Below the pieces are notes generated by a model. It saw only the letters and a list, made by a program, of their open reading frames with translations, ran no database searches and was not told the origin of the DNA. Below are positions 3,590 to 12,914 of a DNA stretch of 64,000 nucleotides, piece by piece. The first letter of the stretch is position 1, and every line of letters starts with the position of its first letter. A program made the position numbers and the translations under genes. The stretch comes from Ferrimonas marina (GTDB taxonomy: Bacteria > Pseudomonadota > Gammaproteobacteria > Enterobacterales > Shewanellaceae): NCBI RefSeq assembly GCF_900129905.1, contig NZ_FQXG01000005.1:62001-126000 (forward strand), given 5' to 3'.

Positions 3590-3631
3590 TGATAAATAAA
3601 ATTATCAGGCTTTGATAACTTTATTTATCAA
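3590..3631. promoter_or_regulatory. Two tandem TGATAA-N6-TTATCA dyads upstream of the kinase gene
   Basis: Left dyad TGATAAATAAAATTATCA (3590-3607) and right dyad TTGATAA-N6-TTATCAA (3612-3631) have centres about 23 bp apart. The two dyads are also mutually inverted: 3591-3606 and 3614-3629 match as an inverted repeat at 15 of 16 positions. They sit in an AT-rich island 220 bases before the kinase start and 160 bases before its probable promoter. Paired operators about two helical turns apart suggest a cooperatively binding dimeric regulator; a cruciform or hairpin is the alternative. Confidence 0.5.
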
Positions 3632-3779: not shown

Positions 3780-3822
3780 TTGGAATTGGCTCACAGATTC
3801 GGTTCATTGGTCCCCCTATAAT
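3780..3822 (+). promoter_or_regulatory. Probable CRP-class-II-like promoter of the histidine kinase operon
   Basis: A TATAAT -10 box lies at 3817-3822, preceded by a C-run (3812-3816). TTGGA-N6-TCACA (3780-3795) is a half-perfect CRP-type dyad centred about 41.5 bp before the expected start point. The same arrangement, TCACAGA-N14-CCCCCTATRAT, occurs before the paralogous kinase at 8513-8544. No good -35 box is visible, which fits activator dependence. Confidence 0.5.
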
Positions 3823-3849: not shown

Positions 3850-5229
3850 ATGTCGTCGCTGTTAATATTTAATATCTATCTATTTTATGGCTTAGCTTTC
3901 TTTGCCATCGGCAGCGTGATCGCATTTCAAAACCTGCGCTTCAGTCAGCTTCCCATTGCCACCGCCCTGCCGGCCCTGGCCCTGTTTGGCTTTACCCACG
4001 CCTTCCATGAGTGGGCCGAGCTCTACCTTGAACTGCTGGCCCCCTACAAATCCCTCTCCTGGCTAAGGGAGATGGCGGTGCTGCGCACCATCAAGCTGTG
4101 GCTCTCCTTCGTGGCACTGACCTGGTTTGCCTGGTTGATGCTGGGCCTGATCCGCTTCCCCCTGCGCCACTGGGTCCGCACCGGTACCTACGGCCTGTTT
4201 CTCCTGTTTGGCCTGCATGTGCTGTTCAGCGCGTTTTACCTCAACCAGGACCATTATCTCGACACGGTTAACCTGCTCACCCGCCTGATCTTTGGCCTGG
4301 GCGCGTCGGTGGTGGCCGGAGCCGCGCTGATCCTCTATGCCCGGCAACACCGCGCCGAGAGCGATCTCTCCGCCGTCTATTTTGGCTACTGTGGCATCGC
4401 CCTGATCGCCTATGGCCTGGCGGCGGGCCTGCTCAAGACCGAATGGAGCCTGTGGGTGCCGGTAACCCGAACCTTCTGCGCCCTGGCCGTGTTGGTCACC
4501 CTGTTTCGCGCGCTGAAGATCTTCGATCGGGAACGGGAGCTGCAGATCCAAGCCCAACAGCGACAGCTCTATCGCGGCGAGAAGATGCGCGCCATGGGCG
4601 AGCTGGCCTCCGGCATCGCCCATGAGATTAAAACCCCGCTGAGCTACGCCCAGCTCAGCTGTGACCTGCTGCAGAAGCGCTGGTGCCCCGACGCACCGGA
4701 ACGCAAACAGCTCGACCGGGTGCAGCGTGGCCTGCAGCGGGCAGCCCACATCAGCCAGGAGGTGCTGCAGTTCTCCCGCCAGCAACCGGCGCAGATGCAG
4801 ACCGTGCAGCTCAGTGAGGTGGTGCACTCCGCCCTGGACCTGATGGCACATCGCCTTAAGCCCTTCACCGTGGCGTGTCGGCTGGATCCCAGCCTGAGGA
4901 TCCAGGGCGATCGCATCAAGCTGGAGGAGGTGCTGATCAACCTGCTGCAGAACGCCATCGATGCCAGCGAGCAGGAGAAGAGTTTGGAGATCCATAGCTG
5001 GGCCCGGGGTGACCGCGTCTTGCTGCAGGTGCTGGATCACGGCAGCGGCATCGACCCGACCCAACTCAAACGGGTGCTGCAGCCCTTCTACACCACCAAA
5101 GACAACGGCACCGGTCTGGGTCTGGCCATCAGCCAGCAGATCATCCATGAGCACCAGGGCGAGCTGACCCTGGACAACTGGATGAAGGGCCTGCGTGTCA
5201 CCATTAACCTACCGAGGTACCTGGCATGA
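3850..5229 (+). CDS. Seven-TM sensor histidine kinase
   Basis: 459 residues. The N-terminal ~230 residues form about seven hydrophobic helices; TM2 carries FTHAFHEWAEL, whose two His and acidic residues are kept in the paralogue at 8573. A linker helix (FDRERELQIQAQQRQL) leads to a HisKA H-box GIAHEIKTPL with H258, then the N-box NLLQNAIDASEQ, G1 DHGSGID, F-box QPFYTTK and G2 GTGLGLAIS, all intact. It should autophosphorylate and pass phosphate to the regulator whose start overlaps its stop by four bases (ATGA). The ligand is unknown; conserved intramembrane His residues make a redox, quinone or haem cue possible (inference). Confidence 0.9.
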   Translation: MSSLLIFNIYLFYGLAFFAIGSVIAFQNLRFSQLPIATALPALALFGFTHAFHEWAELYLELLAPYKSLSWLREMAVLRTIKLWLSFVALTWFAWLMLGLIRFPLRHWVRTGTYGLFLLFGLHVLFSAFYLNQDHYLDTVNLLTRLIFGLGASVVAGAALILYARQHRAESDLSAVYFGYCGIALIAYGLAAGLLKTEWSLWVPVTRTFCALAVLVTLFRALKIFDRERELQIQAQQRQLYRGEKMRAMGELASGIAHEIKTPLSYAQLSCDLLQKRWCPDAPERKQLDRVQRGLQRAAHISQEVLQFSRQQPAQMQTVQLSEVVHSALDLMAHRLKPFTVACRLDPSLRIQGDRIKLEEVLINLLQNAIDASEQEKSLEIHSWARGDRVLLQVLDHGSGIDPTQLKRVLQPFYTTKDNGTGLGLAISQQIIHEHQGELTLDNWMKGLRVTINLPRYLA

Positions 5230-5861
5230 CGCTGAAGATCCTGTTAGCGGAAGACGATACCGAGCTGCGCGAAACCCTGGTGGATGCGCTGGAGTTTGAA
5301 GGGATGGCCGTGCGCGCCTGCGACTGTGCCGAGACCGCCATCGCCGCCGCACAGCAGGAGCGGTTCGACATCGCCCTGCTGGACCTGGTGATGCCGGGAA
5401 TGACCGGGATCGAAGCACAAACCGCCCTGAAACAGATACAGCCGGATATGGGGTTGGTACTGACCACTGCCTTTGCCACGGTGGACACCGCGGTGGAGGC
5501 GATGAAGAAAGGCGCCGACGAGTTCCTCACCAAGCCCTTTAACCTGGAAGCCTTGGCCACTACCCTGCGACGGGTTCAGGCCCAGCGGCAAACCCAGCCT
5601 CAGTTTGCCGACGAAGAGGCGGACAAGATCTTCGCCGCCCTGTCCAACCCCATTCGGCGCCAGGCCCTGCTGCACCTAAGCCATCATGCGCCAATGCGCT
5701 TTATGGATCTGTGCCGCAAGGTGGGCATCGAGGATCACACCAAGTTCAACTTCCACCTGCGCCAACTCAAGCAGAGTGGGCTGCTGCAACAAAATGTGAA
5801 CAAGCTCTACATTCTGACCAACAAAGGCCGCCAGATGTGTCAACTTCTGGCCGGTGAATGA
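5226..5861 (+). CDS. Response regulator with ArsR-like winged-helix output domain
   Basis: 211 residues, translationally coupled to the kinase. The receiver domain is complete: acidic pair D10-D11, phospho-acceptor D53 in LLDLVMPGMTG, T80/T81 in LTTAF, K103 in TKPF. After a Gln-rich linker, residues ~128-211 form an unusual output. FAALSNPIRRQALLHLS is the opening helix of ArsR-type winged helices, followed by a recognition-helix region (KFNFHLRQLKQSGLL) and a wing (KLYILTNKGRQM). This is neither an OmpR, NarL nor NtrC output. Probable target genes are the adjacent octaheme cytochrome and its own operon (inference). Confidence 0.87.
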   Translation: MTLKILLAEDDTELRETLVDALEFEGMAVRACDCAETAIAAAQQERFDIALLDLVMPGMTGIEAQTALKQIQPDMGLVLTTAFATVDTAVEAMKKGADEFLTKPFNLEALATTLRRVQAQRQTQPQFADEEADKIFAALSNPIRRQALLHLSHHAPMRFMDLCRKVGIEDHTKFNFHLRQLKQSGLLQQNVNKLYILTNKGRQMCQLLAGE

Positions 5862-5901
5862 TCAATTTAAAACAAGTAAAAACAGCAGCTTAATCAGGTT
5901 C

Positions 5902-5950
5902 AGATAAGGCCACTTCACAGAAACCCCATTCTGGGTAACCGGGCTTATCT
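5902..5950. promoter_or_regulatory. Nested inverted repeats between regulator and octaheme gene
   Basis: AGATAAG (5902-5908) pairs with CTTATCT (5944-5950), and inside the loop CAGAA (5918-5922) pairs with TTCTG (5929-5933). The GATAA/TTATC half-sites resemble those of the dyads at 3590-3631. It could be an operator for the upstream regulator or an RNA hairpin separating regulator and cytochrome expression. Confidence 0.35.
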
Positions 5951-6023
5951 GGAAGCCACTGAGGCCAATTTCAGATACTCATCCTGCCAAAAATAGCCGC
6001 ATTGAGCGGTGCAGGAGATGATG

Positions 6024-7712
6024 ATGAAAACCTTCCAGAAAACCACCCTGGCATTGCTGATGGGGTCCGTGGCCCTCGTTGGTTGTGGCAGTGACAGCAA
6101 GGACGACACCACCCCGCCGGTGACCCCGCCGCCGGAGAACACCCCGCCAGTCGCGGAAGACGCCAGCCGCGTCACCGAGAGCAACCTGCCGCTCACCATC
6201 AACCCGATGCTGCACGCCAGCGACGCCGACGAAGGCGACGTGCTGACTCTGGTCAGTGCCAGCAGCGAGCAGGGCAAGATCACCGTCGATGGCGATCGCA
6301 TCCGCTTTGACCCCCAGGGCGAGGTGGGCGAAGTAGCCATCCAGTACACCATCAGTGACGGCACCGACGAAGCCTCCGCCACCATCACCGTCAAGGTGCA
6401 CGAGGCGATCTACGCGGGTACCCAGACCTGTCTGACCTGCCACAGCATGGAATCCCTGGGGGATGCCAGTGCGCACCAGAACCACGGTCACAACTTCAAG
6501 ATCATGAAGATCGCCAACGACGAAGCACCGGCCTTCCCTTACGTGGATGTGGACGGCGCGCTGGAGATGATCGACAACGACGGTAATCCCACCGACAACA
6601 CCCTGGGTACCCCAGTCAGCTACGCCGACGTCAGCTACACCTCCGGCGGCTACGCCTGGAAGATCCGCTGGATGGATGAAGACGGCTACCTGGTGACCGG
6701 CCAGCAGGCCCAACACAACGTGCACGCTGAGCGCCTGGGTTACGACGACCAGATCATGTCCAACTACAACGGCGGCACCGTCGACAAGCCCTACGACTGT
6801 GGCCACTGCCACACCACCGGCTGGAAGCCCTACGACGAAGCGCTCAACCCGCAGAAGCAGGATGACCGACCCGGCATCATGGGCACCTGGGTGGCCGAGG
6901 GCGTGCAGTGTGAGGCCTGCCACGGCGCCGGTCGTGACCACGTTAAGAGCATGAGCAAGGACGACATCACCCGCTTCGCCACCCCGCGTACCACCGCGGA
7001 TCTGCAAAGCGACACCATGGGTTACGGTCAGCCGATGCACTGTGCCGAGTGCCACACCCGCGATGGTGATCGTACCCACTGGAAGGGCTATGAGAGCTCC
7101 TTCAACCTGGCCGTGGCCGCTGCGCTGGAAGCCGGCGAGATCACTCAGGAAGTGGCCGATGCCGCGCCGGAATACGGTGCCCGCGTGATGGTTCGTTCCG
7201 GCCTGCCCCGTCACCATCAGACCCACGACGAACTGATGGCGATCGATCCGGACACCTTCGAGATCACCGGTAAGCACTACCAGAAGTTCCCGCTCTACTA
7301 CGGTGCCGAGAACGCCTGTGCGGTGTGCCACGACACCCACGAGTCCACCGTGTTTGAAGGCGGCGCCACCATGGCCTGTACCGATTGCCACACTGGCGAT
7401 CACCAAAAGGAGTTCAACGACGAGCTGAGCTTCAGCCACGCCTCTGTCGACTGTGTAGCCTGCCACATGCCCAAGGTGGTGAAGAACGCCCTGACCACCA
7501 CCACCAAGGCTGGCGTCAAAGCCGGTGATATCGCCCTGCACACCTTCGCCATCGACCTCTACAACGAAAAGGGTCAGGTGCAAGACAGCGAGGCGCGGGA
7601 CACCTATATGTACCCCTACCTGCAGCACGACTTCGCCTGTGGCCAGTGCCACAACGCGGATGACGGCAAGCTGGAGGTACTCAAGGCCAAAGGCGGCACC
7701 ATCCACAAATAA
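6024..7712 (+). CDS. Octaheme c-type cytochrome lipoprotein with an Ig/cadherin-like domain
   Basis: About 562 residues. The start at 6024 fits AGGAG at 6013-6017; ATGs at 6018 and 6021 are too close to it. A lipobox (SVALVGC) predicts a lipoprotein. Residues ~35-125 resemble a cadherin/Ig-like repeat (ASDADEGDVLTL, YTISDGTDEASATITV). The haem part has eight CXXCH motifs: CLTCH, CGHCH, CEACH, CAECH, CAVCH, CTDCH, CVACH, CGQCH. GVQCEACHGAGRDH and CHTTGW match the cytochrome c554/octaheme superfamily. All motifs are CXXCH, so the CXXCK active site of nitrite reductases is absent. It is likely a periplasmic or surface electron carrier or oxyanion reductase; the substrate is unknown. Confidence 0.88.
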   Translation: MKTFQKTTLALLMGSVALVGCGSDSKDDTTPPVTPPPENTPPVAEDASRVTESNLPLTINPMLHASDADEGDVLTLVSASSEQGKITVDGDRIRFDPQGEVGEVAIQYTISDGTDEASATITVKVHEAIYAGTQTCLTCHSMESLGDASAHQNHGHNFKIMKIANDEAPAFPYVDVDGALEMIDNDGNPTDNTLGTPVSYADVSYTSGGYAWKIRWMDEDGYLVTGQQAQHNVHAERLGYDDQIMSNYNGGTVDKPYDCGHCHTTGWKPYDEALNPQKQDDRPGIMGTWVAEGVQCEACHGAGRDHVKSMSKDDITRFATPRTTADLQSDTMGYGQPMHCAECHTRDGDRTHWKGYESSFNLAVAAALEAGEITQEVADAAPEYGARVMVRSGLPRHHQTHDELMAIDPDTFEITGKHYQKFPLYYGAENACAVCHDTHESTVFEGGATMACTDCHTGDHQKEFNDELSFSHASVDCVACHMPKVVKNALTTTTKAGVKAGDIALHTFAIDLYNEKGQVQDSEARDTYMYPYLQHDFACGQCHNADDGKLEVLKAKGGTIHK

Positions 7713-7747
7713 GCCGCCTCATCTCACTTCTCACTCCATACGACAAA

Positions 7748-7772
7748 CGGCCCCTCGCGGGGCCGTTTTTTT
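7748..7772 (+). terminator. Terminator of the octaheme cytochrome gene
   Basis: CGGCCCC-TCGC-GGGGCCG stem followed by seven T. Confidence 0.9.
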
Positions 7773-7785
7773 GTCATCAAGTGCA

Positions 7786-8229
7786 TCAGTTGTAGGTCAG
7801 CAGGGCCAACTCCTCCGCCTGGACCGAATAGGTGTAGCGCAACCGAGCCAGCTGCTGCTCCAGGGCCTGTCGCTGCTGTAGCGACAGGTTCATTCCTCCG
7901 CTTAATCGCTGCTCCAGTGCCTGGATCTCATCACTCTGCACCGCCAGCTGCTGCTCCAAGAACAGGGTACGCCGCTCCAGTGACTGTGGCGCCACCGCGG
8001 GCTCAGGCGAAGCACTCACCACCGCGGATCGGCTTCCCCAGCCTTGCCACAGGATCAGGGCAAACAGCAGCACATTGGCAAGCACCAGGATGGCGGTGAG
8101 TAAGCCGCGCAGTTCACGCATTGCCAAGCGCCAGCGCATGCGCCGCAGTGAGTCACTCAAATCACGATGGTGGGCGCTGGCACGGCGCGACACCGGGCCA
8201 ACACGGACGGGGTGGGGATAACGGGACAC
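7786..8229 (-). CDS. Small membrane protein with C-terminal coiled coil
   Basis: 147 residues from a GTG at 8229, chosen because AGGAG (CTCCT at 8237-8241 on the plus strand) sits seven bases ahead; a longer TTG start lacks a ribosome-binding site. A basic, Arg-rich N-terminus (~40 residues) precedes one TM helix (LLTAILVLANVLLFALILW) and a Gln/Leu/Glu-rich coiled coil to the C-terminus (~80-140). No family is recognised. It faces the octaheme gene convergently and lies upstream of and divergent from the second kinase. It may be a bitopic partner of the sensor proteins, but that is only positional. Confidence 0.6.
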   Translation of the reverse strand: MSRYPHPVRVGPVSRRASAHHRDLSDSLRRMRWRLAMRELRGLLTAILVLANVLLFALILWQGWGSRSAVVSASPEPAVAPQSLERRTLFLEQQLAVQSDEIQALEQRLSGGMNLSLQQRQALEQQLARLRYTYSVQAEELALLTYN

Positions 8230-8501
8230 AACCAAACTCCTCGACCAAGCAGGGGCGGACAGGCGCTTGGCCACCGGCAAGTAAAGCTGGCCAACACCGG
8301 TTTGTCACTGTCGTGGCGGCAACCAAAGACTAGGTGCCTCAATGACCACGCAAAACAAAATGCAACAAAGTGTGGCATTGCCAGAGAGCCCACCCGGATC
8401 TGTCGCGGCATAGCTTCCCCGGCAAAGAATGAACGACACCAGACCGGAGTAATATCAGTCGAATTTTTATTCTTAAAAATGATTAACTTAGCCATAAAAC
8501 T
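8230..8501. other. Intergenic region before the His-less kinase
   Basis: No gene seen. The stretch becomes AT-rich from about 8455 (GAATTTTTATTCTTAAAAATG) towards the promoter of the second kinase; it also holds the divergent start signals of the small coiled-coil protein. Confidence 0.4.
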
Positions 8502-8544
8502 ACTGACATAAATCACAGACGCAATTCGTGCCGCCCCCTATGAT
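8502..8544 (+). promoter_or_regulatory. Probable CRP-class-II-like promoter of the second kinase
   Basis: TATGAT (8539-8544) preceded by CCCCC, with ACTGA-N6-TCACA (8502-8517) centred 41.5 bp before the expected start. The TCACAGA-N14-CCCCCTATRAT pattern is identical in spacing to that before the kinase at 3850, although the N14 differs. Confidence 0.5.
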
Positions 8545-8568
8545 GCTCATCATCTATTCATAGGGGGC
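8533..8568 (+). promoter_or_regulatory. Perfect 11-bp inverted repeat spanning the -10 box and the ribosome-binding site
   Basis: GCCCCCTATGA (8533-8543) and TCATAGGGGGC (8558-8568) are exact reverse complements with a 14-base loop. The right arm contains AGGGGG, the ribosome-binding site five bases before the ATG at 8573. If transcription starts upstream of 8533 the hairpin would mask the start; if it starts near 8551, the dyad would act as DNA. Confidence 0.6.
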
Positions 8569-8572
8569 AGGC

Positions 8573-9955
8573 ATGAACGAACTCGCACTCTACACCATTT
8601 ATTTGATCTACGGCCTGGCCTTCTTCGCCATCGGCATGACCATCTCGCTGCGCGACCTGAAGCTGAGCCGGTTAAGCATCGTCGCCGCGCTGCCGGCACT
8701 GGCGCTGTTTGGCTATACCCATGCCCTGCACGAATGGACCGAGCTCTATATCGAATGGGTTGGCCCCAACCGGGATGTCAGCTGGCACCTGCAGGTGGAG
8801 TCGATGCGCTCGGTCAAGCTGCTGCTGTCCTACCTGGCACTGGGCTGGTTTGCCTGGAAGATGCTGGGGCTGATCCGCTGGCGCTACCTGCACTGGATGC
8901 GCACCATCACCTACGCGGTGATGACCACCTACCTGGCCTTGCTGGCCATCAGCTACCAAGCGATGGCATTGGAAGCCTTTCTGCCGACTGCCAATACCCT
9001 TACCCGTTGGATCTTTGGCCTTGGGCCTGCGGTCGTATCTGGCCTGGCCCTCACCGCCTACGCTCGCCAGCAGCATTGGCGCAGCCATCGTGGCGCCCGC
9101 TACTTCGGATACTGCGGTCTGGCCCTGATCGCCTACGGCGTTGCTACTGGCATCATCCCCACCGATTTGGGCCTGTGGGTCCCCGTGCTGCGCGCCAGCT
9201 GCGCCCTCGCGGTGTTGTACTGCCTGGCCAGGGCCCTCTCGATCTTCGACTGGGAGCGGGAGGAGCAGATCCGCCAGGCCCAGTGGCAGTTGGTTCGCGC
9301 CGATCACCACCGTGCTGTCGGCACCCTGGCCTCCGGCCTTGCCAGTGAGATCGAACAACCGCTGCAGCGGGCGATGGAGAAGTGTGACGAACTGGAGCCG
9401 GAGCTCGATATGGACTCCGACGGCCCCTATCGGCTGGAGCAGATCCGCGACGAGCTGCAGCGCTCCCGCGAGGTGTGCAAGGAGCTGGTGACCTTCTCCC
9501 AGCATGCCCAGGATGATCTGCAGGCCCTGCCACTGGACACCCTGCTCAACTCCGCACTGGAGCTGCTCAGTCACCGCCTCAAGCCCTTTATCGTGCTGCA
9601 GGACCTGGAGCCGGGGCTGACCATCCTGGGCAATGAGAAACAGCTCAAGGAGGTGCTGGTCAACGTGTTGAGCAACGCCATCGACGCCTCCGAGGAGGTC
9701 AAACGACTGGAGATCAGCGCCGTACTCAAGGAGGGCGAGGTGCAACTGGAGATACGCGATTACGGCCCGGGCCTCAGTGGTGAGGGCCAAAACAACGCCA
9801 CCGAACCCTTCTACACCACCAAGCAGGAGCACATGGGGCTGGGCCTGACCCTCTGCCACCAGGTGCTGCAGCAGCATGGCGGTCAACTGAGCCTGGAGAA
9901 CTGGCACCACGGCCTGGCGGTGCACCTGAACTGGCCCCGTCACCAGCCAGCCTGA
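8573..9955 (+). CDS. Degenerate 7-TM histidine kinase paralogue lacking the phospho-accepting His
   Basis: 460 residues, the same architecture and near-identical length as the kinase at 3850 (for example FGYTHALHEWTELYIE in TM2). In the H-box, GLASEIEQPL replaces GIAHEIKTPL: position 258 is Ser instead of His, and the flanking Lys-Thr is Glu-Gln. The ATPase part is largely kept: N-box NVLSNAIDASEE, G1 DYGPGLSG, F-box EPFYTTK; G2 is reduced to HMGLGLT. It cannot autophosphorylate on the usual residue but may bind ATP and heterodimerise with the intact kinase. The reading frame is uninterrupted, so it seems maintained rather than decaying. No second regulator is adjacent. Confidence 0.88.
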   Translation: MNELALYTIYLIYGLAFFAIGMTISLRDLKLSRLSIVAALPALALFGYTHALHEWTELYIEWVGPNRDVSWHLQVESMRSVKLLLSYLALGWFAWKMLGLIRWRYLHWMRTITYAVMTTYLALLAISYQAMALEAFLPTANTLTRWIFGLGPAVVSGLALTAYARQQHWRSHRGARYFGYCGLALIAYGVATGIIPTDLGLWVPVLRASCALAVLYCLARALSIFDWEREEQIRQAQWQLVRADHHRAVGTLASGLASEIEQPLQRAMEKCDELEPELDMDSDGPYRLEQIRDELQRSREVCKELVTFSQHAQDDLQALPLDTLLNSALELLSHRLKPFIVLQDLEPGLTILGNEKQLKEVLVNVLSNAIDASEEVKRLEISAVLKEGEVQLEIRDYGPGLSGEGQNNATEPFYTTKQEHMGLGLTLCHQVLQQHGGQLSLENWHHGLAVHLNWPRHQPA

Positions 9956-9971
9956 CGCCAGGCTCTAAACG

Positions 9972-10004
9972 CAAAAACGCCCCGGCATGGCCGGGGCGTT
10001 TTGT
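9972..10004. terminator. Bidirectional terminator between the second kinase and erpA
   Basis: AACGCCCCGGC-ATG-GCCGGGGCGTT stem with A and T runs on its flanks, serving both convergent genes. Confidence 0.88.
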
Positions 10005-10022
10005 TATCTGAACCGGGTAGGC

Positions 10023-10373
10023 TCAGATGGAGAAGGAGGCACCGCAGCCACAGGTGGAGGTGGCGTTGGGGTTGCTAACGAAGAAGCGGCTGCCCTCCAG
10101 ACCCTCGGTGTAATCCACCTCACCACCGACCAGATACTGCAGGCTCATGGCGTCCACCAGCAGGGTCACGCCCTCTTTCTCGATGGTGAAGTCACCTTCG
10201 TTGATCTTCTCATCGAAGGTAAAACCATACTGGAAACCGGAGCAACCGCCACCGGTCACGTACACGCGAAGCTTCAGCTCCGGGTTTTCCTCTTCGGCCA
10301 GCAGCGCCTTTACCTTGGCGGCCGCGGCATCGGAGAACTCAATCGGCATGGCTTGTTCAACGGCTGCAGTCAT
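10023..10373 (-). CDS. erpA: Iron-sulfur cluster insertion protein ErpA
   Basis: 116-residue A-type Fe-S carrier, the usual length. The three cluster-ligating cysteines are in [11 protein letters not shown] and the C-terminal CGCGASF. It hands Fe-S clusters to apoproteins such as IspG/IspH and respiratory enzymes in the cytoplasm. The start has a good AGAGGT ribosome-binding site. The DUF6776 gene lies directly upstream on the same strand, 54 bases away. Confidence 0.96.
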
Positions 10374-10427
10374 GGTTACCTCTGGGATTGTTTGACGGCC
10401 GGATTATCCAATACCCGACCAAAGCAT

Positions 10428-11183
10428 TCAAGCTTTCTCAATCAAACGTGCGAGAGCCCCCTCACTGATCAACTCAGTGATCGGAAAGGCGGTCTCGGCA
10501 CTGGCGGCGCGCTGGTTACCGCTGGCGGGCAGGCGCAGGTTGACGCGGATCCGCTCCGGCACAAAGCCGTCAGGCAACTTGAGGCTGCCCTCCAGCTCCT
10601 GGAAGTAGCGGAAGGAGAACGCCAGACGCTCCTCATCGCCGCCCAGCTCGGTCAGCTTCAGGCTGCGGGCCTTGCCGTTCTGACTGCCGTCCAACGTTAC
10701 CTGGGCGGTACCGCGCACCGTGCTGTTACGGATCTTCTGCTGGCTCAACACCAGGCGGAAACGAAAGCGCTGGGCCGAGGCGGTCTCATCCACCACCAGG
10801 TCATGGATGTGCACCCCGTCGGCGGTCTTCTCCGGCGCCATGATGTTGCGGTAGAACGCCAGCTCGCGCTCCATCTCCTCCATGGTGCCACGCTGGCGGG
10901 CCATCAGCGCCCGGGTCTCCTGCTGGCTCTGCTGCTCCATCTTCAGCTCCAGGTCCAGCGCCGCATTGCGCTTCTCCAGTTCAAGCCGCTCGTAGTTCCA
11001 CAGCTTGGACTCGGTCTCCAGCTCGCCGAACTCCTTGATCACATGCAACTGATTGAGCCAGCCCAGCCCCATCCCCAGCACCAGAACCAGCAGCATCAGC
11101 GGAAACAGCAGGACACCTCGTGGATTAAGCCGCTGTTCCCATTGGGTAAAGGCGTGCCAGCGATGTTTTAAATATTGCATCAT
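10428..11183 (-). CDS. DUF6776-like single-pass membrane protein
   Basis: About 251 residues from tandem ATGs at 11183/11180; a 25-residue upstream extension would overlap the divergent CLC promoter and has no ribosome-binding site. One TM helix (VLLFPLMLLVLVLGMGLGW) is followed by a long coiled coil (~50-110, ELETESKLWNYERLELEKR) and a beta-rich C-terminal domain. I recall this architecture as DUF6776 in gammaproteobacteria, next to bactofilin or erpA; its function is unknown. It probably shares a transcript with erpA. Confidence 0.7.
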   Translation of the reverse strand: MMQYLKHRWHAFTQWEQRLNPRGVLLFPLMLLVLVLGMGLGWLNQLHVIKEFGELETESKLWNYERLELEKRNAALDLELKMEQQSQQETRALMARQRGTMEEMERELAFYRNIMAPEKTADGVHIHDLVVDETASAQRFRFRLVLSQQKIRNSTVRGTAQVTLDGSQNGKARSLKLTELGGDEERLAFSFRYFQELEGSLKLPDGFVPERIRVNLRLPASGNQRAASAETAFPITELISEGALARLIEKA

Positions 11184-11243
11184 GTTGGTTTTCTTAGCTT
11201 TGTCAGTGATAAACTTGTTGTATCGCCGCCCGATTTTTCTGAC

Positions 11244-12914
11244 ATGATCAACGAACATAAGTTTCGCTTATCCCATCCGCGCATCAGCCTCCAGCTTTGC
11301 TTCCTGGGGCTGTTGGTGGGGATCCTGTCCAGCGGCTTGATCGTGCTGTTCCAGCTTGCCGTGTCCGGCTTGCAGGCCCTGCTTTGGGTCGAATCCGAGG
11401 ATTTTACCCAGCTGCCCATGTGGATGCGAGTGGCGCTGCCCATCGCTGGGGCGGCGATCATCCATCAGTTGATCCGCCACTCCCGCGCCTCCTACCGACG
11501 CATGGGCATCGCCTACGTTATCCACCGGGTCAAGATCCACTACGGCCGGCTGCCCCTGGGCTCCGGCATCGGCCAGTTCCTCCACGCGGTGGTGGCGCTG
11601 GCCAGCGGCTTTTCGGTCGGTAAAGAGGGCCCAGCGGTGCACATCGGTGCCAGCGCCGCCACCATGGTGGCCAAGCGCTGGTCGCTGCCAGACAACACCA
11701 TGCGCATCCTCTCATCTTGCGGCATAGCGGCCGGTATCTCGGCGATCTTTAATACCCCGCTGGCCGGTGTGATCTTCGTCCTCGAGGTGGTACTGCGGGA
11801 GTACAAGATCCACTACATCCTGCCGATCATGCTCGCCGCCATCGCCGGCGCGGTGATCTACCGGGCGGTGTTTGGCAATACCCACGTCTACGAGCATCTG
11901 GAGCTGCTGCGGATGCCGCTGGAGCAGTACCCCACTTTGGTGCTGTTTGGCCTGGTAGTGGGGGTGGTTTCCGCCCTGTTCAGTAAGGCGCTGCTGACCA
12001 CCACGGCGGTCAGTGCCAACCAGCCACAGTGGCTGCGCTTTGCCCTGGCCGGGGGCATTACCGCGGTGGTGGGGCTGATGATCCCAGGCGCCCTGGGCGG
12101 CGAAGCGGGCGTGGTGGCCCTGTCCCACAGCAGCGACATCACCCTGGGCCTGATCTTCGCCCTACTGCTGGGCAAGATGGTGCTCACCATCGCCGCCCTG
12201 GGGCTGGGGATCCCCGGTGGCCTGATCGGCCCGCTCTACGGCATCGGCGCCCTGCTCGGCGCCCTGCTGGTACTGATCCTCTCCCCCATGCTGCCTCAGG
12301 TGGCCGAATACCATAGCCTCTACACCGCCCTGACCATGACCGCCATGATGGGGATCTGCCTCAATGCCCCGATGGCCTCACTGATCGCCCTGGTGGAGCT
12401 GACCGACAACGCCACGGTGATCGTGCCCTTCCTGCTGATCACCCTGCCCGGTTTCCTTTTGGCCCACGAAGGTCTGGGCGGCCGTGCCATCTTCCTGCGG
12501 CAGCTCGATCTGATGGGGCTGAACTACAAGGTGCCGCCACTGGAGCAGGCACTGCAGAAGGTGGGGGTACTGGCGTTGGTCAACTCCGCCATCGTCGCGG
12601 TACGGCCGCAACTGTCCGAGGCGGAGCAGCTGGACCTGATCAAAAGCGCCGAGGGCCGGCGCTTATTGATCCCCACCGGCGAAGGGCAGGACCTGCTCTC
12701 CCTCAGCGACGACTACGCTCATCAGGCTACCCCGTTGAAACGCACGCCACTGCAGGGGCTGCCGGACACCGCCACCCTGGCGGAGGTGTATCGGGCCCTG
12801 GAGCCCAAGCGCACTGGCATGGTGTTCATCTACCACAAGGATCCCAGCTGCCCCATCGGGGTGATCACCTGGGCCCGCCTGCACCGCTACTTCCGGATCG
12901 AGGGAAGTGGCTGA
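11244..12914 (+). CDS. clcA: CLC-family chloride channel/transporter
   Basis: 556 residues, membrane domain (1-~430) plus a soluble C-terminal domain (~440-556) that may be a degenerate CBS region. CLC signatures are GSGIGQ, GKEGPAVHIGA (gating glutamate E128) and GIPGGLIGPLYGIGALLGA. The position equivalent to the proton glutamate E203 of E. coli ClC-ec1 (IIEE) is V182 here (VLEVV), as in CLC channels. Passive chloride conductance rather than 2Cl-/H+ exchange is therefore plausible. The start at 11244 was chosen because an upstream in-frame start would overlap the divergent DUF6776 gene. The clcA symbol is by family only. Confidence 0.88.
   Translation: MINEHKFRLSHPRISLQLCFLGLLVGILSSGLIVLFQLAVSGLQALLWVESEDFTQLPMWMRVALPIAGAAIIHQLIRHSRASYRRMGIAYVIHRVKIHYGRLPLGSGIGQFLHAVVALASGFSVGKEGPAVHIGASAATMVAKRWSLPDNTMRILSSCGIAAGISAIFNTPLAGVIFVLEVVLREYKIHYILPIMLAAIAGAVIYRAVFGNTHVYEHLELLRMPLEQYPTLVLFGLVVGVVSALFSKALLTTTAVSANQPQWLRFALAGGITAVVGLMIPGALGGEAGVVALSHSSDITLGLIFALLLGKMVLTIAALGLGIPGGLIGPLYGIGALLGALLVLILSPMLPQVAEYHSLYTALTMTAMMGICLNAPMASLIALVELTDNATVIVPFLLITLPGFLLAHEGLGGRAIFLRQLDLMGLNYKVPPLEQALQKVGVLALVNSAIVAVRPQLSEAEQLDLIKSAEGRRLLIPTGEGQDLLSLSDDYAHQATPLKRTPLQGLPDTATLAEVYRALEPKRTGMVFIYHKDPSCPIGVITWARLHRYFRIEGSG

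What the first reader, a model, noticed from the sequence alone, without database searches (positions are those of the whole stretch)
8573..9955. Kinase paralogue with Ser in place of the phospho-accepting His, next to an intact kinase/regulator pair
Two 7-TM kinases of equal domain layout flank an octaheme cytochrome. In the second, residue 258 (His in the first) is Ser and the adjoining Lys-Thr is Glu-Gln, while N, G1 and F boxes remain and the frame is open. This looks like a maintained pseudokinase that could heterodimerise with, inhibit or retune the first kinase, using the same 7-TM sensing module. A paired sensor/antisensor around a multiheme cytochrome is, to my knowledge, not described.
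Basis: partly seen in the sequence, partly recalled or inferred. Interest (0 to 1): 0.72.

Follow-up and report, generated by a model that had tools for sequence, protein, structure and literature searches.

The report
His-less sensor kinase beside intact twin
In one Ferrimonas genome a bacterial sensor kinase has a nearby duplicate that kept its membrane sensor but lost the histidine it needs to signal, so it is probably a regulator of its working twin rather than a kinase itself.

Summary
K1 (3850-5229) and K2 (8573-9955) are 47% identical over 457 residues without a gap. Residue 258 is His in K1, Ser in K2, and His in 32 of 32 other relatives read.

K1, its regulator and the octaheme gene form a cassette shared by Ferrimonas, Paraferrimonas and Shewanella. 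No K2 orthologue turned up: it is a fast-evolving duplicate known from one genome. Neutral evolution is rejected in each domain; only DHp is looser than the family.

The change exceeds one residue. The basic residue and phosphatase Thr after the His, the predicted regulator-docking face and the first Gly of G2 are gone. The sensor (37 of 39 invariant sites) and one heptad stripe of DHp helix 1 (9 of 9) remain. K1 and K2 leaders look alike.

Best reading: a maintained pseudo-histidine kinase that tunes K1, most simply by mixed dimers. Selection is supported; the mechanism is inferred. Pseudo-histidine kinases are known (DivL, RcsD), so this is a new member of a known kind.

The parts
3850..5229 (+). 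K1, intact 7-TM HisKA sensor kinase (His258 = CAT 4621-4623)
5226..5861 (+). Response regulator, receiver plus winged-helix (DUF7347-like) output; overlaps K1 by 4 bases; only full-length homologue among 28 matches in the genome
5901..5951 (+). Inverted repeat CAGATAAGGCC / GGGCTTATCTG before the octaheme gene, partly conserved in the 12 Ferrimonas leaders aligned (window included); putative operator (inferred)
6021..7712 (+). Octaheme c-type cytochrome, 8 CxxCH, lipoprotein-like N-terminus (read from the sequence), Big_9/cadherin-like domain
7745..7768 (+). Terminator-like hairpin after the octaheme gene (1 found against 1.4 expected, so weak on its own)
8513..8544 (+). K2 promoter-like module TCACAGA-N14-CCCCCTATRAT, same spacing as at K1
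3791..3822 (+). K1 copy of the same module
8573..9955 (+). K2, pseudo-histidine kinase
8573..9247 (+). K2 7-TM sensor, residues 1-225; 37 of 39 family-invariant sites kept
9248..9517 (+). K2 linker and DHp region, residues 226-315, fastest-evolving part
9344..9346 (+). Codon AGT, Ser258 in place of the phospho-acceptor His
9518..9940 (+). K2 CA (HATPase_c) domain, residues 316-456; N, G1, F boxes kept, first Gly and Thr of G2 replaced by His-Met

Best explanation
K2 is a selectively maintained pseudo-histidine kinase made by duplication of K1, probably within the lineage of this genome. It keeps K1's 7-TM sensor, a packing stripe of DHp helix 1 and most of the ATP-binding motifs. It has lost the phospho-acceptor, the family's phosphatase residue and the family's predicted regulator-docking face. 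Most likely mechanism (inferred): K2 is made alongside K1 from a similar promoter, senses the same input and pairs with K1 through the sensor and the DHp bundle. Mixed dimers have one acceptor and one docking face, so they lower or retune phosphorylation of the single regulator and hence octaheme cytochrome expression. Supported by computation: homology, loss of His, selection, pattern of loss. Inferred: expression, pairing, direction of the effect, and that the regulator controls the octaheme gene.
For: Same sensor: 37 of 39 family-invariant sites kept; sensor identity to K1 is 53%, against 57% between K1 and its G004 orthologue. Kept under selection: whole-gene omega on the K2 branch is 0.079, and omega = 1 is rejected (2dL 53.2; TM 18.6, DHp 12.8, CA 23.3); only DHp is looser than background (0.120 vs 0.055, 2dL 9.6). 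0 gaps over 457 residues. Focused loss: positions 258, 261, 262, 265, 266, 268, 269, 273 are H, K, T, S, Y, T, L, and L or M in 12 of 12 other Ferrimonas K1s and S, E, Q, Q, R, M, E, E in K2 (K1 itself has Q at 268); in 32 of 32 relatives read, 265/269/270 are only S or A / L, M or I / G, S or A, and K2 has Q/E/K. One heptad stripe of helix 1 is kept 9 of 9 against 9 of 23 elsewhere (p 0.0017 for one of seven registers, about 0.012 corrected); in the control G002b, whose branch is as long, it is 6 of 9. No second regulator: 1 of 28 matches in the genome covers the whole regulator. Leaders: module at the same spacing; 43 of 100 identical in ATG register with a one-base shift, reached by 13 of 127,402 control 100-mers. 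Literature: CrdS H371A keeps phosphatase activity and N375Q has none measurable (PMC3510030 passages).
Against: No orthologue, so conservation of Ser258 is untested and K2 could be young and doomed. No expression or interaction data. DHp helix 2 keeps only 2 of 6 invariants (control G002b 4 of 6) and no heptad register stands out there (best p 0.26), which could mean that dimerisation is hurt too. The total of invariant sites kept is not higher than in the control (61 of 73 against 64 of 73). K2 lacks the repeat found before the octaheme gene and no sigma-70-type promoter was found before it. The leader pattern and the one-base shift were chosen after seeing both leaders; in a plain local alignment 27 of 2000 shuffles and 49 of 2937 random window stretches score as high. 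Synonymous changes are near saturation (recalled rule of thumb; K2 branch dS about 2.6 in the less well converged), so omega values are rough. In RcsC/RcsD, an active/inactive pair, cryo-EM argues against 1:1 heterodimers (PMC13317618 passages).
Confidence: 0.45

Rival explanations
1. K2 works as its own homodimer, in the manner of DivL: it reads the membrane signal or binds another protein and does not pair with K1.
For: The helix-1 stripe and the N, G1 and F boxes are kept, and the predicted docking face carries new, mostly charged or polar residues (Q, R, M, E, K, E at 265, 266, 268, 269, 270, 273), as expected if it now binds something else. DivL, which has Tyr for His, binds a phosphorylated regulator and has neither kinase nor phosphatase activity (PMC4211667 passages).
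Against: No candidate partner gene recognised beside K2: the nearest ORF (7786-8280) has no Pfam match above its cut-off. Only one regulator of this type in the genome.
Confidence: 0.2
2. K2 is in slow decay: the transmitter is being lost and the remaining constraint reflects the past or only avoidance of a toxic membrane protein.
For: Found in 1 of 14 Ferrimonas genomes held. Long branch: 1.65 vs 0.5. DHp branch length 4.52 vs 0.60. DHp omega is above background.
Against: Open frame, no indel over 457 residues. Omega = 1 rejected in all three domains; CA omega (0.069) not above background (0.084). Losses in helix 1 spare the packing stripe.
Confidence: 0.17
3. K2 is a dedicated phosphatase of the regulator: it cannot make phosphate but still removes it.
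For: CrdS H371A without the His keeps phosphatase activity (half-life of the phosphorylated regulator 2.6 min against 53.5 without enzyme; PMC3510030 passages). K2 Glu259-x-x-Gln262 lines up with Glu-x-x-Gln in FixL-derived structures; recalled, from no call: FixL has phosphatase activity.
Against: All 32 relatives read have T or N at 262. In CrdS, N375Q has no measurable phosphatase activity. In other HisKA kinases the His itself is said to be implicated in dephosphorylation (PMC5727384 passages). The predicted docking face is changed in K2.
Confidence: 0.1
4. K2 is still a kinase, using another acceptor (His245 or His246 just upstream, or Ser258) or phosphorylating K1's His258 in trans only.
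For: His at 245 and 246 is seen in K2 and in none of the 13 Ferrimonas K1s compared. N, G1 and F boxes and Glu259 are intact. A mixed dimer could let K2's CA domain serve K1's His.
Against: 245 and 246 lie 12-13 residues from 258, more than three helical turns. The basic residue after the His is now Glu261; in CrdS a basic residue there is needed for full kinase activity. G2 is altered.
Confidence: 0.06

Closest known systems
DivL (Caulobacter pseudo-histidine kinase acting on CckA)
   Same: His replaced, here by Ser and there by Tyr; HK fold kept; DivL (4q20) is among the Foldseek rows of the K2 model (ranks 44 and 48 of 50 shown); no autonomous kinase activity expected.
   Different: DivL has PAS domains, is shared by many alphaproteobacteria and binds a phosphorylated regulator (PMC4211667 passages). 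K2 is a 7-TM protein known from one genome, with a changed docking face.
RcsD, partner of RcsC
   Same: Architecture similar to that of the active kinase, membrane sensor, inactive histidine kinase domain, proposed to regulate the RcsC kinase/phosphatase balance (PMC13317618, a preprint, passages).
   Different: RcsD has ABL and Hpt domains and relays phosphate; K2 ends with the CA domain. K2 is a recognisable duplicate of K1.
RetS/GacS in Pseudomonas aeruginosa
   Same: One sensor kinase dampening another; three mechanisms including inhibition of GacS autophosphorylation (PMC5992135 abstract).
   Different: RetS takes phosphate from GacS-P and acts as a phosphatase (same abstract), which K2 is not expected to do.
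Evolved ChrS pseudokinase in Corynebacterium glutamicum
   Same: A catalytically dead paralogue changes signalling that runs through HrrS; the native paralogues heterodimerise (PMC9491836 abstract and passages).
   Different: Laboratory frameshift in the CA domain; heterodimers of the truncated form were not significant. K2 is natural, full length and lost the acceptor instead.
Plant ethylene receptors of subfamily 2 (recalled; only listed papers that use the term degenerate)
   Same: Paralogues with degenerate histidine kinase domains that act with an intact paralogue through a shared membrane sensor.
   Different: Eukaryotic, other sensor, other output.

Membership tests
HisKA sensor histidine kinase | Phospho-acceptor His in the H box | tested here: not met
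   Ser258; His in 32 of 32 relatives read
HisKA sensor histidine kinase | HisKA domain match | tested here: not met
   No Pfam HisKA match listed at E up to 1; K1 matches at 2e-12
HisKA sensor histidine kinase | HATPase_c with N, G1, F, G2 boxes | tested here: inconclusive
   HATPase_c E 1.6e-17; N, G1, F kept; G2 GTGLGL is HMGLGL
Pseudo-histidine kinase (general) | Histidine kinase fold with another residue at the acceptor site | tested here: met
Pseudo-histidine kinase (general) | Gene maintained by selection | tested here: met
   omega = 1 rejected in three of three domains; recent decay not excluded
Pseudo-histidine kinase (general) | Signals without kinase activity | not testable with these tools
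   Needs biochemistry and genetics
DivL | PAS domains before the transmitter | tested here: not met
   No PAS match; seven long helices in the model
DivL | Replacement residue conserved in orthologues | tested here: inconclusive
   No orthologue found
RcsD | C-terminal Hpt domain | tested here: not met
   460 aa, HATPase_c reaches residue 455, no Hpt match
Dedicated HisKA phosphatase | E/DxxT/N motif | tested here: not met
   Glu259-x-x-Gln262
Heterodimerising modulator kinase (RetS-like) | Physical interaction with the active kinase | not testable with these tools
   Structure tool folds single chains only
K1-regulator-octaheme cassette | Second, K2-type kinase is part of the cassette in general | tested here: not met
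   0 of 19 other cassette loci taken; in 1 of 13 kinase-bearing Ferrimonas genomes, the window's own

The most novel reading that the evidence does not exclude
A recently born antisensor: after duplication, one copy of a respiratory sensor kinase was turned, under selection, into a His-less subunit that keeps the ligand sensor and dimer core but sheds acceptor, phosphatase residue and regulator docking, so that it dampens its own twin in the control of a multiheme cytochrome. It would catch the birth of a pseudo-histidine kinase with the ancestral kinase still next door.
Probability: 0.35. Interest if true: 0.6.

Novelty: new member of a known kind. Interest (0 to 1): 0.42.

Why it matters
To my knowledge few natural bacterial pseudo-histidine kinases are characterised, and the well-known ones are old. 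Here the active parent and the dead copy share sensor, neighbourhood and perhaps promoter, and the substitutions fall in an interpretable pattern. That makes 'how does a kinase become a regulator of its twin' testable with two proteins and one regulator. If the pair controls a multiheme cytochrome, it would also show a way of tuning respiratory gene expression in metal-reducing bacteria.

Tried and rejected
Orthologues of K2: searched in 193 relatives besides the own genome (E up to 1e-40), all 14 genus genomes held (E up to 1e-25), an even sample of 394 genomes of the order, own genome included and overlapping, the GTDB contig collection by two peptide patterns (records very near the window's genome may be left out) and plasmids (5 Vibrio records, 35-40% identity, H box not read). 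No orthologue: the closest non-own matches are 45-46% identical (G004, G006) and have His; the closest named one is 43% and has His.

Second regulator for K2: rejected, 1 of 28 matches in the genome is full length.

Long-branch artefact: the other long row, G002b, does not group with K2 (held together: p-AU 0.006). K1+K2 as sisters has 89/69 support, which is not strong; a tree with the clade-A K1s apart from K2 is not rejected (p-AU 0.34), and one with all Ferrimonas K1s apart is borderline (p-AU 0.065). So the date of the duplication is open.

First codon fit was poorly converged and suggested a raised omega for the whole gene; the better fit (two random starts per model, K1 as control) confines the rise to DHp. 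I report.

First H-box extraction misread minus-strand loci; only its window rows are used here, and relatives come. Sigma-70 scan found no promoter before K2 (0 found, 0.6 expected). A solved relative of the octaheme protein: none at E up to 0.01. A solved fold for the 7-TM sensor: the 50 Foldseek rows shown, of 651 matches, are histidine kinase-type or phytochrome entries. Pfam for the ORF between octaheme gene and K2: nothing above its cut-off.

Rows left out: loci were taken for 20 of 37 non-own matches. The tree has 27 kinases: 2 of the window, those 20, and 5 Vibrio. The codon test used 8 of them. The octaheme-leader alignment used 12 genomes, window included, without G010. His258 was read in 32 of 38 non-own matches, and in 19 of 34 loci. 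Of those 19, 16 have His; 3 remote loci (L077, L079, L085) gave no readable H box. At least four of the 16 are the same genomes as (equal contig lengths).

Full report
Setting. The window lies in a Ferrimonas genome: four same-genus genomes have contigs of the same length as named records (548,802 F. kyonanensis; 503,929 F. sediminum; 418,907 F. futtsuensis; 728,489 F. sediminicola). The locus reads K1 (3850-5229), response regulator (5226-5861), octaheme cytochrome (6021-7712), an opposite-strand ORF of unknown function (7786-8280), and K2 (8573-9955), followed by an iron-sulphur scaffold-like gene (called erpA here from recall, no call) and a DUF6776 gene.

The observation. K1 and K2 align without gaps over 457 residues at 47% identity. 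Residue 258 is His in K1 and Ser in K2, by codons that differ at two bases. HisKA is recognised in K1 only, HATPase_c in both. The same position is His in 32 of 32 other members read, out of 38 non-own matches found.

What is conserved elsewhere. Of 20 relatives' loci taken (out of 37 non-own matches), 19 carry kinase, regulator and octaheme gene side by side. The twentieth (L047) is a second, divergent kinase-regulator pair of one Ferrimonas (G002), next to a 10-CxxCH ORF. Among named genomes 11 of 16 related kinases sit with an octaheme gene, and the 5 Vibrio ones do not in the stretch held. At E up to 1e-40 the octaheme protein has relatives in 38 of 193 other genomes searched and the kinase in 36 of 193 (own genome subtracted). 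Of the 14 Ferrimonas genomes held, 13 have the kinase; two have a second one: the window's (K2) and G002 (37% identical to K2, with His). So the 'pair around a multiheme cytochrome' is one genome's elaboration of a conserved cassette.

Origin. In the tree K2 is sister to the window's K1 (89/69, moderate) on a branch of 1.65 against 0.5. An earlier split within the genus is not excluded. The leaders favour duplication with promoter: TCACAGA-N14-CCCCCTATRAT occurs at nearly the same distance from both starts and nowhere else in the window at up to 3 mismatches (expected 0.05, but the pattern was chosen after the fact). In ATG register with a one-base shift, the best of seven tried, 43 of 100 bases agree, reached by 13 of 127,402 control stretches. 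A plain local alignment is less striking (27 of 2000 shuffles and 49 of 2937 window stretches as good). TCACA is present within 150 bases of the start in 12 of 12 other Ferrimonas K1 leaders.

Is it maintained? Omega = 1 is rejected for the gene (2dL 53.2) and for each of sensor, DHp and CA (18.6, 12.8, 23.3). Only DHp is looser than the background (0.120 vs 0.055, 2dL 9.6). With K1 as foreground no domain differs from background (2dL 0.1-0.7). Synonymous changes are near saturation, so the numbers are rough, but evolution as a neutral pseudogene is excluded for most of the branch's history. Recent decay is not.

What was lost and kept. Protein branch lengths for K2 and K1 are 0.81/0.43 in the sensor, 4.52/0.60 in DHp and 1.50/0.40 in CA. 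K2 keeps 37 of 39 invariant sensor sites, 7 of 8 in the H helix, 2 of 6 in DHp helix 2 and 14 of 19 in CA, with 1 of 1 in the linker 61 of 73 in all. G002b, with an equally long branch and an acceptor His, keeps 38 of 39, 6 of 8, 4 of 6 and 15 of 19, 64 of 73 in all. So the number of losses is not special; their place is. In helix 1 K2 has residues not seen in the other Ferrimonas K1s at 258, 261, 262, 265, 266, 268, 269, 270 and 273, among others. The first three correspond to acceptor, basic residue and phosphatase residue of CrdS (PMC3510030, passages); 266, 269, 270 and 273 correspond to contacts of HK853 with its regulator (recalled, from no call). Meanwhile 250, 253, 257, 260, 264, 267, 271, 274 and 278, a heptad stripe of small and hydrophobic residues, are all kept (9 of 9 against 9 of 23; p 0.0017 before correction for seven registers; G002b 6 of 9); helix 2 shows no such pattern. 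That is what one expects of a helix that must still pack in a four-helix bundle but no longer has to be phosphorylated or dock the family's regulator.

How it probably works. With the acceptor gone K2 is not expected to start a phosphorelay. With Gln262 (N375Q in CrdS has no measurable phosphatase activity) and a changed docking face it is unlikely to be the regulator's phosphatase, although FixL-derived structures carry Gln there. No second regulator of this type was found for it. What remains is a sensor and a dimerisation module, with an ATP-binding site whose G2 box is altered and whose lid is poorly predicted (residues 418-423 under pLDDT 50). The most economical mechanism is a mixed dimer with K1, which halves acceptors and docking faces and so lowers or retunes output. 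I give this 0.45. Rivals are a DivL-like homodimer, slow decay, a phosphatase, and a residual kinase.

Comparison. Pseudo-histidine kinases are a known kind: DivL, RcsD and a laboratory-evolved ChrS (PMC4211667, PMC13317618, PMC9491836; passages or abstracts). RetS/GacS shows kinase-on-kinase control (PMC5992135 abstract). A Caulobacter hybrid kinase without the conserved His is also mentioned in print (PMC11481889 passages). My paper searches (top 25 of 931 and 15 of 377 shown) listed nothing on this locus or on a His-less 7-TM duplicate beside a multiheme cytochrome; most subscription papers are not held. The K2 case is a new member, notable for its apparent youth and its intact parent, and limited by resting on one genome.

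Noticed in passing
L047:7228-8589 (-), with 8780-11356 (+): A second, divergent kinase-regulator pair of this family in one Ferrimonas (G002) has His but Gln in place of the Glu next to it, and lies beside a divergent ORF with 10 CxxCH motifs: another family member with an altered H box next to a multiheme cytochrome.
   Followed up: partly
window 5901-5951: Inverted repeat CAGATAAG...CTTATCTG before the octaheme gene, the only copy in the window. In the 12 leaders aligned (window included, G010 left out) the right arm reads CTTATCTGG or CTAATCTGG in 12 of 12 and the left arm holds GATAA in 9 of 12. Candidate binding site of the regulator.
   Followed up: partly
window 5226-5861: The regulator has a receiver and a DUF7347/ArsR-like winged-helix output, an unusual combination as far as I recall; no other full-length copy among 28 matches in the genome.
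   Followed up: no
window 8533-8568: Perfect 11-bp inverted repeat GCCCCCTATGA / TCATAGGGGGC whose second arm covers the likely ribosome-binding site of K2; an operator or a translational hairpin is possible.
   Followed up: no
window 3590-3630: An 18-nt inverted repeat, 94% complementary with 5 nt between arms, between the DsbA-like gene and K1.
   Followed up: no
L039:11112-15872: Downstream of the octaheme gene, where the window has K2, another Ferrimonas (G006) has an RND-type efflux protein (named from recall of its sequence) and other ORFs before its DUF6776 gene: this stretch is variable.
   Followed up: partly
L065, L066, L068, L069, L070: Vibrio kinase-regulator pairs of this family have no ORF of 150 aa or more with two or more CxxCH in the stretch held, so the family is not tied to cytochromes.
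   Followed up: no
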